Origin: an uncultured Polaromonas sp.
GTDB taxonomy: Bacteria > Pseudomonadota > Gammaproteobacteria > Burkholderiales > Burkholderiaceae
NCBI GenBank assembly: GCA_946479075.1
Contig: CAMLDT010000159.1
Coordinates: 1 to 8,100, forward strand
Length of the DNA stretch: 8,100 bases
Direction: 5' to 3'
Both the position numbers and the translations under genes were made by a program. Numbering within the stretch: position 1 is the stretch's first letter; every line of letters begins with the position of its first letter. Under the pieces are notes generated by a model. That model saw nothing but the letters and a program-made list of their open reading frames with translations, had not been told where the DNA came from and ran no database searches. This document shows positions 587 through 3,499 of this stretch, piece by piece.

Positions 587-3499
587 TCAGGCGAGAAGCT
601 GGCGAAGCACAAAAGGCAGGATGCCGCCGTGGCGGTAATAGTCCACCTCGATGGGGGTGTCGATGCGCAGGATCAGCTGCAGCTTGTGTTGCGTGCCATC
701 ACCGCGCGTGACGGTCAGCGTCGCCTCGCTTTGCGGCCTGAGGTCGGGATCGGTCGCGATGTCGATCAGCTCGTCACCGGTCAGGCGCAAGGTCTGCCAG
801 GAGTCGCCGGGCTTGAACTGCAGCGGCAGCACGCCCATCCCGACCAGGTTGCTGCGATGGATGCGCTCGAAACTGCGCGCCACCACGGCCTGGATGCCCA
901 GCAGTTGTGTGCCCTTGGCCGCCCAGTCGCGCGACGAGCCGGTGCCGTATTCCTCGCCGGCAAAAATGACCGTGGGCGTGCCCTGGTCCATGTATGTCAT
1001 GGCCGCGTCGTAGATGGCCATCTTCTCGCCGCCCGGCTGGAACAGCGTGACGCCGCCCTCCTCGCGCGAGCCGTCCGGGCCGGCGGGAATCATCAGGTTC
1101 TTGATGCGCACATTGGCAAAGGTGCCGCGCATCATCACTTCGTGATTGCCGCGGCGCGCACCGTAGCTGTTGAAGTCGGCTTTCTGCACGCCATGGGCCA
1201 GCAGCCACTGGCCGGCCGGCGAGCTGCCCTTGATGGAGCCGGCCGGTGAGATGTGGTCGGTGGTGATGGAGTCGCCAAACAGCGCCATGATGCGCGCGCC
1301 CTTCACCGATGCAGCATCTTTTTGGCCTCCAGCCCCCGCCGGTCCTGCATCATCAGCTATGGTTTTCATAGCAAAATCAGTGAAAAACGGCGGTTCGGCG
1401 ATGTAGGTGCTCCGCGGCCAGGTGTAGGTGTTGCCTTTGACGCCCTTGATGTTTTCCCACAGCTTGCCGGGTTCGGTGCCGACTTTGGCGTAGTTGTCGC
1501 GGAAGGCCTTGCCGTTCATTGCAAACTTCATCAGCTTGTAGATCTCGTCGCTGGTGGGCCAGATGTCGCCGAGATACACATCCTTGTCGCCCTTGCCCTT
1601 GCCGACCGGCTCGGTCATCAGGTCACGCATCACCGTCCCGGCAATCGCATAGGCCACCACCAGCGGCGGGCTGGCCAGGAAGTTGGCTTTCAGGTTGGGG
1701 TGGATGCGCGCCTCGAAGTTGCGGTTGCCTGACAGCACGGCGGCGCAGACCAGGTCGCTCTTGTTGATGACATCGTTGATCTCGGGCGTCAGGTCGCCGG
1801 CATTGCCGATGCAGGTCGTGCAGCCGTAACCGACCAGCGCAAAGCCGAGCTTTTCCAGATAAGGCAGCAGGCCGGTGTTGGTCAGGTATTCGGTGACGAT
1901 GCGCGAGCCCGGTGCCAGCGAGGTCTTGATGTGCGGCTGCACCTTCAGCCCGGCTTCCACCGCTTTTTTCGCCAGCAGGCCGGCCGCCAGCAACACGCTG
2001 GGGTTGGAGGTGTTGGTGCAGCTGGTGATGGCAGCAATCAGCACATCGCCGTTGCCGATGGTGACGCTGCCTGTCTTCACGGACTTCACAGACTGCGTCG
2101 CCTTGGCACCGCCTTCGGACTGGGCAGCCGCCAGGGTCGGGCGGTTGCCCTCCATCTCGAACTCCATGCGCGGTGCACCGGCCGGGGTGGGCGGCGCGCC
2201 GGGCGCCGTGTCCGGTTCGGCGGGGCGCTCCTCCTGCGACGCCTGGTGCAGCAGGTGCCGCGTGGACAGCAGGGCCGCCGGCTGGTTGAAGCCATTCTCG
2301 GAATTGGGCTTGCTGAACAGGGAAGCAAACTGACTGGCCACCTGCCCCAGCTCGATGCGGTCCTGCGGGCGTTTGGGTCCGGCCAGGCTGGGGGTGACGT
2401 CGCCGAGGTCAAGCTTGACGACCTGCGAAAAATCAATGTCGCCGGGCAGCGGCACGCCGAACAGGCCCTGGGCGCGGAAGTAGGCTTCAAAGGCCTCGAT
2501 CTCGCCCTTGGTGCGGCCGGTGCCGGTGAAGTACTCGATGGTTTTTTCATCGACCGGGAAGAAACCCATGGTGGCACCGTATTCCGGTGCCATGTTGGCA
2601 ATCGTCGCGCGGTCCGGCAGGGCCAGCGTGCGTGTGCCTTCCCCAAAAAACTCCACAAACTTGCCGACCACCTTCTGCTTGCGCAGCTCTTCCGTCACGC
2701 GCAACACCAGGTCGGTGGCGGTCACGCCTTCCCGCAGCCGGCCGGTCAGCTCGAAGCCGACCACGTCCGGCGTCAGCATGTACACCGGCTGGCCCAGCAT
2801 GGCGGCTTCGGCTTCAATGCCGCCCACACCCCAGCCGACCACGCCAATGCCGTTGATCATGGTGGTGTGGCTGTCGGTGCCGACCAGGGTGTCGGGGTAA
2901 TACACACCGTCGCCGCCCTTGTGCACGCCGCGGGCCAGGTACTCCAGGTTGACCTGGTGCACGATGCCAAAGCCCGGTGGCACCACGCCAAAGGTGTCAA
3001 AGGCCTGCATGCCCCACTTCATGAACTGGTAGCGCTCGTTGTTGCGCTGGAACTCCAGCTTCATGTTCAGGTCCAGCGAGTTTTTCTTGCCGTAATAGTC
3101 CACCATGATGGAGTGGTCCACCACCAGGTCCACCGGCACCAGCGGCTCGATGCGTTTGGGGTTCTTGCCGAGCTTGACAGCGACGGCGCGCATGGCGGCC
3201 AGGTCGGCCAGCAGCGGCACGCCGGTGAAATCCTGCAGCACCACGCGTGAAACGACGAAGGGAATTTCCTCGGTGCGGTCTGCGTTCGGAAACCAGTTGG
3301 CGAGCTGGCGCACATGTTCGGCGCTGACCTTCTTGCCGTCGCAGTTGCGCAGCACCGACTCCAGCACGATGCGCATGGACACCGGCAGGCGCGACACCTT
3401 GGGAAACTGCTTGGCAAGGGCCGGCAGCGAGTGGAACTTGCCGGTCTTGCCGGAGGCGGTCTTGAAGGTTTTCAGGGTATTGGCAAACGCGTGGGCCAT
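587..3499 (-). CDS. acnA: Aconitate hydratase A (AcnA/IRP type)
   Basis: A 970-residue cytosolic aconitase that interconverts citrate and isocitrate through cis-aconitate, using a [4Fe-4S] cluster. The three cluster cysteines are C494 (in TSCTNTSNPS) and C560 and C563 (in YGCTTCIGN); their 66 and 3 residue spacing is that of E. coli AcnA (435, 501, 504 as I recall). DSHTTMINGIG at 209-219 and GWGVGGIEAEAAMLGQP at 222-238 are active-site blocks. The C-terminal swivel domain starts near 735, with GDSITTDHISPAGSI at 742-756, YGARRGNHEVMMRG at 779-792 and YGTGSSRDWAAKG at 851-863. The protein is longer than E. coli AcnA (891). One extra stretch is a Pro/Ala-rich linker at about 403-475. The other is a short linker at 710-728 encoded by a dispersed repeat. 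The start ATG has AGGAG six bases upstream (3506-3510). It lies 121 bp after serA, and I see no clear promoter or terminator in that gap. All key residues are present, so it should be active. Confidence 0.97.
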   Translation of the reverse strand: MAHAFANTLKTFKTASGKTGKFHSLPALAKQFPKVSRLPVSMRIVLESVLRNCDGKKVSAEHVRQLANWFPNADRTEEIPFVVSRVVLQDFTGVPLLADLAAMRAVAVKLGKNPKRIEPLVPVDLVVDHSIMVDYYGKKNSLDLNMKLEFQRNNERYQFMKWGMQAFDTFGVVPPGFGIVHQVNLEYLARGVHKGGDGVYYPDTLVGTDSHTTMINGIGVVGWGVGGIEAEAAMLGQPVYMLTPDVVGFELTGRLREGVTATDLVLRVTEELRKQKVVGKFVEFFGEGTRTLALPDRATIANMAPEYGATMGFFPVDEKTIEYFTGTGRTKGEIEAFEAYFRAQGLFGVPLPGDIDFSQVVKLDLGDVTPSLAGPKRPQDRIELGQVASQFASLFSKPNSENGFNQPAALLSTRHLLHQASQEERPAEPDTAPGAPPTPAGAPRMEFEMEGNRPTLAAAQSEGGAKATQSVKSVKTGSVTIGNGDVLIAAITSCTNTSNPSVLLAAGLLAKKAVEAGLKVQPHIKTSLAPGSRIVTEYLTNTGLLPYLEKLGFALVGYGCTTCIGNAGDLTPEINDVINKSDLVCAAVLSGNRNFEARIHPNLKANFLASPPLVVAYAIAGTVMRDLMTEPVGKGKGDKDVYLGDIWPTSDEIYKLMKFAMNGKAFRDNYAKVGTEPGKLWENIKGVKGNTYTWPRSTYIAEPPFFTDFAMKTIADDAGPAGAGGQKDAASVKGARIMALFGDSITTDHISPAGSIKGSSPAGQWLLAHGVQKADFNSYGARRGNHEVMMRGTFANVRIKNLMIPAGPDGSREEGGVTLFQPGGEKMAIYDAAMTYMDQGTPTVIFAGEEYGTGSSRDWAAKGTQLLGIQAVVARSFERIHRSNLVGMGVLPLQFKPGDSWQTLRLTGDELIDIATDPDLRPQSEATLTVTRGDGTQHKLQLILRIDTPIEVDYYRHGGILPFVLRQLLA
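1314..1373 (-). repeat. 60-bp dispersed repeat, copy inside acnA, read in frame
   Basis: On the minus strand this 60-base block starts TGCTATGAAAACCATAGCTG and ends GGAGGCC, five A, GATGC. It aligns without gaps to the block at 7417-7476 with 37 of 60 identical bases. The matches cluster in TGCTA at 1-5, ATAGCTG at 14-20, GAGGCC at 45-50 plus AA, and GATGC at 56-60. The first 17 bases after the T form a perfect 6-bp hairpin, GCTATG-AAAAC-CATAGC. It is exactly 20 codons long and encodes about residues 710-728 of aconitase (AMKTIADDAGPAGAGGQKD), just before the swivel domain. The AT-rich head uses codons such as ATA that look unusual in this GC-rich gene. I recall this family from Comamonadaceae genomes but have not verified that. 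Confidence 0.75.

What the first reader, a model, noticed from the sequence alone, without database searches (positions are those of the whole stretch)
1314..1373. A dispersed repeat is built into the aconitase coding sequence as an inter-domain linker
The 60-base block on the coding strand of acnA matches the intergenic block at 7417-7476 at 37 of 60 positions with no gaps. The shared words TGCTA, ATAGCTG, GAGGCCAA and GATGC stand at identical spacing. The block is exactly 20 codons and falls where the catalytic core joins the swivel domain, a surface linker that can tolerate insertion. It keeps a perfect 6-bp hairpin at its head. This suggests that a small non-coding repeat entered a core TCA gene in frame and was kept as about 19 residues of protein. 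I infer the insertion; an older shared origin or convergence is possible.
Basis: partly seen in the sequence, partly recalled or inferred. Interest (0 to 1): 0.72.

Follow-up and report, generated by a model that had tools for sequence, protein, structure and literature searches.

The report
In-frame genomic repeat inside aconitase gene
A short DNA repeat scattered widely through these bacteria also forms part of the protein-coding sequence of aconitase and of several other core enzymes, and the copies inside genes seem to change in step with the other copies of the same genus.

Summary
The acnA block is a DNA-level copy of an abundant ~60-65-bp repeat: 3-117 exact-core copies in 17 of 21 searched genomes with a repeat-bearing acnA linker, 0-2 in 32 of 33 genomes with the 34-residue linker. 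A profile built without AcnA copies finds it (E 9e-9; best in reversed sequence 3.4). 0 of 20,000 synonymous recodings score as well.

23 of 80 readable linkers, from several genera, score as repeat-bearing, 22 of them (window included) at the identical offset and phase. Order-wide relatives have 29-36-residue linkers against 46 here. The net gain is ~12-13 codons for a ~21-codon element, so ancestral linker was lost or overwritten.

Five further core genes (PurL, PutA, an ECH_2 hydrolase, a GlcE-like oxidase, a NuoE/F fusion) carry it in frame at orthologous sites, in PutA and ECH_2 with no clear length change. In-gene copies resemble the repeat pool of their own genus (47-49 of 59; register-broken controls 17-24).

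Best reading: a new repeat family of the known 'repeats inside ORFs' kind, apparently evolving in concert by patch replacement. The family is solid; the mechanism is inferred.

The parts
1314..1373 (-). copy of the dispersed repeat read in frame within acnA (touching residues 709-729); HMM hit 1316-1375
7417..7476 (+). intergenic copy of the same repeat, starting 2 bases after the stop codon of the upstream regulator gene
   Evidence: a repeat hit lies at the syntenic place in L001 (6090-6045)
587..3499 (-). acnA, aconitate hydratase (970 aa), host of the in-frame copy
   Evidence: Pfam Aconitase 1.2e-158 and Aconitase_C 2.8e-37
6579..7415 (+). HTH / MmyB-like regulator gene upstream of the intergenic copy
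   Evidence: Pfam MLTR_LBD 1.1e-27

Best explanation
SHOWN: the block in acnA is a DNA-level member of an abundant dispersed repeat of Comamonadaceae-type Burkholderiales (about 60-65 bp, core ATAGCTG-N24-GAGGCC, preceded by about GCTATnnATTTG and followed by about nATTTGnCTTnAAA). The repeat also lies in frame, at orthologous positions, in several other core genes. The 24-nt variable part of in-gene copies resembles other copies of the same genome and genus more than orthologous copies of other genera. INFERRED: copies enter coding sequence where the gene tolerates variable sequence and where one repeat frame is open, often by replacing a patch of resident sequence rather than by clean addition. 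They are then kept similar to the genome's own repeat pool by ectopic recombination (gene-conversion-like patch copying), against loss through decay or deletion. The peptide is tolerated filler; no benefit to aconitase is implied.
For: Profile and recoding tests. In one search, 23 of 80 readable linkers score above -5 bits (cut chosen after seeing the two groups), p 0.001-0.002 against 1000 recodings each; 22 of the 23 at the same offset, L064 12 bases on, all in one codon phase (recount). Copy number against linker. Order-wide linkers of 29-36 residues in 29 of 29 fetched loci other than G003's own. Other genes: Pfam identity, recoding tests on columns not used to find the copies (the chance match L092 fails, 3451 of 5000 recodings as good), orthologous position and phase. 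Length: PutA 61 residues in 5 of 5 carriers and in 8 of 9 non-carriers (66 in the other); ECH_2 57-63 in carriers, 59-62 in 10 of 11 non-carriers (67 in the other); GlcE 70-77 against 66-72; PurL 67-74 against 59-64 in 9 of 10 non-carriers. Concerted evolution: identity in the variable 24 nt is 0.583 same genome/other gene, 0.535 same genus/other gene, 0.504 other genus/same gene, 0.470 other genus/other gene; 0 of 2000 within-gene label permutations reach the difference; four register shifts give differences of -0.009 to 0.019 against 0.064 in register. Assignment to own-genus pool 49 of 59 (0 of 5000 permutations, mean 23), 47 of 59 with re-made pools, reversed 24, rotated 17-21, shuffled letters mean 20.5 and maximum 30 of 300 shuffles; 18 of 24 for genomes that gave no pool copies. 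Polaromonas CF318 (G004) has 1 exact-core copy and no clear repeat signal in the five genes tested.
Against: No conversion event was seen between close strains. The window's own AcnA copy fits no pool well (Polaromonas -41.6, Rhodoferax -40.8 bits), so for this copy concerted evolution is not shown. Four-fold sites outside the element still agree between genera at 0.58-0.69 in PurL and AcnA (chance 0.40-0.45) and 0.44-0.51 in ECH_2 (chance 0.33-0.39), so age alone has not erased DNA similarity. On a rooted AcnA tree one origin needs 12 losses, equal costs need 10 changes. Length neutrality rests on alignment of variable regions and could hide insertion plus deletion. The NuoE/F fusion has about 20-25 more residues than four relatives (L287-L290, the last two not scored), nearer to a true insertion, though L279 and L286 are as long without the signal. 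Variovorax PurL (L239, L241) keeps a weak partial resemblance (p 0.0025), so 'absent' is not clean there. In ECH_2 and PutA the copy lies inside the Pfam domain match, not between domains.
Confidence: 0.55

Rival explanations
1. Ordinary selfish or MITE/RPE-like insertion: the element inserted in frame in an ancestor of the group, flanking sequence was trimmed later, and copies now decay independently. Resemblance to the own-genus pool comes from new insertions at the same favoured sites.
For: Repeats inside ORFs are known in Rickettsia and for REPs. AcnA linkers show graded decay and an 8-residue-shorter form in L001-L003. The NuoE/F fusion is about 20-25 residues longer than four relatives. 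Hits are depleted in coding DNA.
Against: No clear net length change in PutA and ECH_2. Same site and frame in several genera for six genes, with genus-specific sequence. Target duplications and a transposase were not searched for.
Confidence: 0.25
2. The repeat is a DNA motif with a function in trans (for example a binding site, or an uptake-like sequence driven by biased transformation), whose genus-specific 'dialect' is selected both in intergenic and in tolerant coding positions.
For: Dialects between genera, both orientations in genes, nearly length-neutral spread in some genes, density 118-164 per Mb around acnA in Polaromonas and Acidovorax. DNA uptake sequences are known to have dialects and intragenic copies (titles and abstract starts in the search listing only).
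Against: 60-65 bp is far longer than known uptake sequences (9-12-nt cores, recalled). Only 13 of 57 hits in named genera (14 of 60 in all) lie inside called genes though 80-95% of the DNA of those genera's loci is called coding. No binding or uptake data. Several genera of the family lack it.
Confidence: 0.17
3. Chance similarity or convergence of two 60-mers.
Confidence: 0.01

Closest known systems
Rickettsia palindromic elements (RPE) and Wolbachia counterparts
   Same: dispersed repeats read in frame inside conserved protein genes as well as between genes (PMC2229807, passages; the Wolbachia case only as a title in its reference list)
   Different: RPEs are given there as 105-146 bp with terminal inverted repeats, in Rickettsia; this family is about 60-65 bp in Comamonadaceae-type bacteria, with little net length change in several genes and genus-specific similarity of in-gene copies
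REP elements tagged GTAG or CGTC (REP/RAYT systems)
   Same: short, mostly intergenic, high copy, some inside ORFs, in one case at about the same site of recB in two Xanthomonas species (PMC3733652, passages and section 15)
   Different: no terminal GTAG or CGTC tag in the consensus strings, longer, and the second stem is broken in two of three genera; Acidovorax and Polaromonas are not named in that paper's main text
Beta-proteobacterial repeat element (BRE, Hot et al. 2011)
   Same: dispersed repeat reported in Polaromonas, Rhodoferax, Acidovorax and Bordetella, some copies entirely in coding sequence (PMC3110155, passages and section 14)
   Different: full-length Bordetella BREs are 75-91 bp, Bordetella BREs are 63.7-78.9% G+C, and Delftia acidovorans SPH-1 has 13 copies; here the Polaromonas consensus is 30 of 63 G+C and Delftia acidovorans NBRC 14950 has 0 exact-core copies. 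The BRE sequence itself was not available for comparison
DNA uptake sequences (DUS/USS)
   Same: genus dialects and copies in coding positions
   Different: much shorter motifs (recalled); no evidence of uptake here (papers seen only in the search listing)

Membership tests
Rickettsia-type palindromic elements | dispersed repeat present in intergenic DNA and in frame in conserved genes | tested here: met
Rickettsia-type palindromic elements | palindromic, with terminal inverted repeats | tested here: inconclusive
   Two internal stems were tested, the ends were not. The second stem is broken in the Polaromonas (63 copies) and Rhodoferax (30) sets, where its central pair forms in 2-3% of copies; in the Acidovorax set (13) 89% of cells pair, 85 of 500 shuffles as good. 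The head-stem test has no power because one arm was fixed by the search pattern
Rickettsia-type palindromic elements | sequence homology to RPE | not tested
   no RPE sequence was fetched
GTAG/CGTC REP | terminal GTAG or CGTC tag on a 20-40 bp palindrome | tested here: not met
   the three consensus strings carry no such terminal tag (read by eye)
GTAG/CGTC REP | associated RAYT transposase | not tested
BRE | sequence identity to the Bordetella element | not testable with these tools
   the sequence is in a figure and supplement that are not held; length, G+C and Delftia copy number point to a different element
MITE | terminal inverted repeats and target-site duplication | not tested
   no clean empty/filled site pair was at hand
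DNA uptake sequence | enhances DNA uptake in a competent host | not testable with these tools
   none
Rfam families | match to a curated RNA family | tested here: not met
   no match in the window at gathering scores, none at E <= 1 in six loci with copies

The most novel reading that the evidence does not exclude
A chromosomal repeat family that overwrites, rather than interrupts, tolerant patches of core genes and then keeps in-gene copies evolving in concert with the genome-wide pool (gene conversion, short-patch illegitimate recombination or uptake-like molecular drive), so that unrelated enzymes of one genus share a stretch of coding DNA that differs from the orthologous stretch of the next genus.
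Probability: 0.35. Interest if true: 0.82.

Novelty: new variant of a known kind. Interest (0 to 1): 0.62.

Why it matters
If concerted evolution of in-gene repeats holds, part of the amino-acid sequence of core enzymes is set by a genome-wide DNA homogenising process and not by the enzyme's own history. That would bias alignments and trees of such segments, and would give a natural, countable assay for short-patch recombination between dispersed repeats. No paper describing this family surfaced in the ten literature searches made here (open-licence PMC papers only), with BRE as the nearest report.

Tried and rejected
Own genome: not held, so the many-copies test was run on genomes of relatives. 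RNA hairpin as the function: no covariation where the test has power, no Rfam match. Full-length AlphaFold model of AcnA with 28 rows: mean pLDDT 37.7, unusable, so no structural claim rests on it. Single clean ancestral insertion in acnA: needs 12 losses on the rooted tree. Complete synonymous saturation as proof of active maintenance: not saturated, argument dropped. BRE identity: could not be tested directly. DUF748 protein L153: passes the recoding test but only 1 of 14 loci tested, its own, shows the element at that place and phase; L293, L298 and L300 have p 0.0025 on the other strand or elsewhere. L133/L175 pass the test but have no Pfam family, so coding status is unsure. N-terminal cases (LipB L112/L147, BamB L148, CAP L155) may be upstream of the true start. 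Literature search for short-patch double illegitimate recombination: 0 papers held; that mechanism name is recalled. The same repeat in phages: 1 record.

Rows dropped and limits: could not read 16 of 120 listed proteins or L004. One search left 4 rows with p below 0.05 at other offsets (L005, L037, L057, L065) and L030 (p 0.001 at the same offset, score -16.6) outside the 23. Of 47 candidate frames among 110 copies 19 proteins were scanned with Pfam and 12 had a family; they come mostly from two Polaromonas genomes and are not a census. One search left out L285 and L337 and all PutA of the longer type (L262-L273); L283 and L317, counted as carriers, have stop codons within the match. In one search L281, L326, L328, L228 and L229 have p 0.0025-0.025 but score 5 or less and are not counted as carriers. 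One search compared 54 in-gene copies of Polaromonas, Acidovorax and Rhodoferax; rows of Ramlibacter, Ottowia and Giesbergeria were typed but not compared; Comamonas, G005, Simplicispira and some AcnA rows (L013, L017, L018, L022, L041) were not entered. Searches used 59 copies; orthologues without a locatable element were not included. In one search one test copy (PurL L223) was also in the training pool; re-made the pools without overlap. The Acidovorax pools are a selection of the copies printed. The gene caller is my own crude one, and its loci are all centred on acnA, so the acnA copies themselves raise the in-gene count. The trees are quick ones without bootstrap.
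Full report
WHAT IS THERE. The window is a Polaromonas-like contig end: the AcnA protein is 92% identical to that of Polaromonas sp. C12 (L001), and most of the listed hits that carry an organism name are Polaromonas. acnA (587-3499, minus) shares the window with an HTH/MmyB-like regulator (6579-7415) and a pyridoxamine-oxidase-like gene on the plus strand. The two 60-mers match at 37 of 60 positions in register.

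IS IT MORE THAN CHANCE. An HMM was built from 34 copies of the pattern ATAGCTG-N24-GAGGCC taken from other places, none from AcnA. It finds the AcnA block at E = 9.1e-9 and the intergenic block at 1.1e-13 in about 1.5 Mb, while reversed sequences give nothing better than E = 3.4. A caveat is that the pattern used to collect seeds came from the words shared by the two blocks. Two tests avoid this. AcnA linkers of other loci that lack the exact pattern are found too (10 further linkers at E < 0.02). On the columns outside the pattern the window copy still scores 23.2 bits against a recoding mean of 2.5, with 0 of 5000 recodings as good. With all columns 0 of 20,000 recodings reach 49.6 bits under acnA codon usage, and 0 of 20,000 under flat usage.

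A LARGE FAMILY. Exact-core copies per genome reached through the loci: Acidovorax 6-117, Polaromonas 1-73, Rhodoferax 1-49, Ottowia 40, Giesbergeria 69, but 0-2 in the Variovorax, Comamonas, Hydrogenophaga, Roseateles/Pelomonas, Methylibium, Caldimonas, Ramlibacter and Delftia genomes searched. The same pattern read backwards gave 0 or 1 per orientation and genome. A profile search gives 60 hits at E <= 0.01 in the 80 loci and 0 in reversed sequence: 164 per Mb in 201 kb of Acidovorax, 118 per Mb in 127 kb of Polaromonas, none in 274 kb of Variovorax, all around acnA. 13 of the 57 hits in named genera (14 of 60 in all) fall inside called genes, so the family is mainly intergenic. No Rfam family matches.

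THE ACNA LINKER. The segment from PPFF to GDSITTD is 34 residues in 33 loci of the family set and 29-36 residues in 29 of 29 loci fetched across the order, not counting G003's own. It is 46-48 residues in most repeat-bearing rows. For 80 readable linkers (window plus 79; L004 could not be read) the best repeat score was compared with 1000 synonymous recodings. 23 score above -5 bits with p of 0.001-0.002, 22 of these at the identical offset and one (L064) 12 bases on, in the same phase. L030 scores lower but also has p 0.001 at that offset. Four more rows have p below 0.05 at other offsets. The 34-residue linkers never show it at that offset. Of 21 repeat-bearing rows with a searched genome, 17 have at least 3 exact-core copies; Ramlibacter L006 (0), L022 and L029 (1 each) and L064 (2) do not. 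Of 33 rows with 34-residue linkers, 32 have 0-2 copies and L048 has 21. Rhodoferax antarcticus (L037, 49 copies) has a 36-residue linker without the signal at that offset, so the link is strong but not strict. Close relatives L001-L003 have a linker 8 residues shorter that keeps both ends of the element-coded peptide, consistent with a deletion. Pfam and the alignment with IRP1 2b3x place the segment between the core and the C-terminal domain.

NOT A CLEAN INSERTION. The element touches 21 codons but the linker is only 12-13 codons longer than in the short-linker relatives, so about 9 ancestral codons were lost or replaced. On an AcnA tree without linker columns the repeat label needs 10 changes (shuffled mean 20.6, 0 of 500 as low); forcing one gain needs 12 losses.

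OTHER CORE GENES. Among copies in two Polaromonas genomes several lie in real genes: PutA at the start of the aldehyde dehydrogenase match, PurL between the Pfam matches at 184-233 and 447-603, a response regulator between receiver and DNA-binding domains, an ECH_2 hydrolase (inside its domain match), a GlcE-like FAD oxidase, and a NuoE/F-type fusion between its first two matches. Each passes the recoding test on pattern-free columns (0-1 of 5000 recodings as good), and the chance match L092 fails. For five of these genes relatives were fetched from up to 28 genomes. The element is found at the same place and phase in orthologues of several genera: above 5 bits in PurL 15 of 27 loci, GlcE 12 of 27, ECH_2 14 of 25, PutA 5 of 14, NuoE/F 5 of 10, the source loci included. 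The Methylibium, Caldimonas, Roseateles/Pelomonas, Aquabacterium and Hydrogenophaga loci fetched lack it. Variovorax PurL (L239, L241) shows a weak partial resemblance (p 0.0025, scores -34 and -37). Polaromonas CF318 (G004), with a single exact-core copy in its genome, has no clear signal in all five (L232, L253, L279, L325, L343; lowest p 0.042); its AcnA linker could not be read. Segment lengths hardly differ between carriers and non-carriers in PutA (61 in both, one non-carrier 66) and ECH_2 (57-63 against 59-62, one 67), differ by a few residues in GlcE (70-77 against 66-72) and PurL (67-74 against 59-64, one 67), by 12-13 in AcnA, and by about 20-25 in the NuoE/F fusion relative to L287-L290, while L279 and L286 are as long without the signal. 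The frame most often open in the repeat (87 of 115 copies) is the one used in AcnA, ECH_2 and GlcE; the frame never open (0 of 115) is not used in these six genes.

CONCERTED EVOLUTION. In the 24-nt variable part of 54 in-gene copies, copies in different genes of one genome agree at 0.583, of one genus at 0.535, the same gene between genera at 0.504, different genes between genera at 0.470; permuting genus labels within genes never reaches the difference (0 of 2000), and four shifted registers give differences of -0.009 to 0.019 against 0.064. Pools of mainly non-genic copies assign 49 of 59 in-gene copies to their own genus (permutation mean 23, 0 of 5000; one test copy was in the pool), 47 of 59 with re-made pools, against 17-24 when the register is broken, and 18 of 24 for rows from genomes that gave no pool copies. 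Rhodoferax G016 shows it by eye: PurL, GlcE and AcnA share TATTCCACGAGGGCTA. Against this, the window's own AcnA copy fits no pool well, and a test with phylogenetic correction was not done.

MECHANISM. Shown: membership, in-frame location, orthologous sites, genus-specific similarity. Inferred: patch replacement and ectopic gene conversion. Repeated insertion at favoured sites with compensating deletion, or selection for a DNA motif with genus dialects, remain possible. RNA structure is unlikely to be the driver: the second stem does not covary and is broken in two genera (the head stem could not be tested because one arm was fixed by the search).

COMPARISON. Repeats inside ORFs are known: RPE (PMC2229807, passages) and GTAG/CGTC REPs (PMC3733652, passages and section 15), including one pair at about the same site of recB. 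BRE of Bordetella and other beta-proteobacteria (PMC3110155, passages and section 14) also has some copies in coding sequence; length, G+C and Delftia copy number suggest a different element, but the sequences were not compared. Long-lasting concerted evolution of whole genes in prokaryotes has been reported (PMC6053082, abstract and outline). I therefore file this as a new variant of a known kind.

SIDE FINDING. A plasmid search with an Acidovorax copy hit 1830 plasmid records, 1646 of them Escherichia, Klebsiella or Salmonella; 6 of the 10 listed rows name a DUF1010 protein under the match. Three hits were opened. In the E. coli plasmid pP11b it lies antisense in the DUF1010 frame between dfrA12 and aadA2 of a class 1 integron; in the two Comamonadaceae plasmids it lies next to or between genes. 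The cassette region is about 72-74% identical over about 220 nt to the ~318-bp tandem array of Acidovorax defluvii. How many of the 1830 are this cassette was not checked.

Noticed in passing
window 1-45: The contig end looks like an Illumina sequencing adapter read into the assembly (adapter recognised from memory).
   Followed up: no
L392:1485-1553 (E. coli plasmid pP11b): A strong copy of the repeat (nhmmer 1.4e-15) lies antisense inside the DUF1010 cassette frame between dfrA12 and aadA2 of a class 1 integron; 1830 plasmid records match the query. Part of Pfam DUF1010 may be this repeat translated, and the cassette may stem from Comamonadaceae arrays.
   Followed up: partly
L100:1964-2818 and G009 contigs C1, C17, C33: About 318-bp tandem units with repeat copies in Acidovorax defluvii; closely spaced copies also in other genomes (G014, G040).
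   Followed up: partly
L008:9717, L009:9739, L011:9747, L013:9798, L014:9747: Acidovorax loci share a repeat hit about 160-230 bases before the start of the acnA match.
   Followed up: no
L171:904-1581: A response regulator whose segment between receiver and DNA-binding domains (residues 121-143) is made of the repeat in antisense frame.
   Followed up: partly
Polaromonas CF318 (G004): Genome with 1 exact-core copy; no clear repeat signal in five genes that carry it in other Polaromonas, as if genic and intergenic copies were lost together.
   Followed up: partly
window AcnA residues about 415-480: A second Pro/Ala-rich segment in AcnA, next to a stretch left unaligned with IRP1; no repeat hit was listed there.
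   Followed up: no
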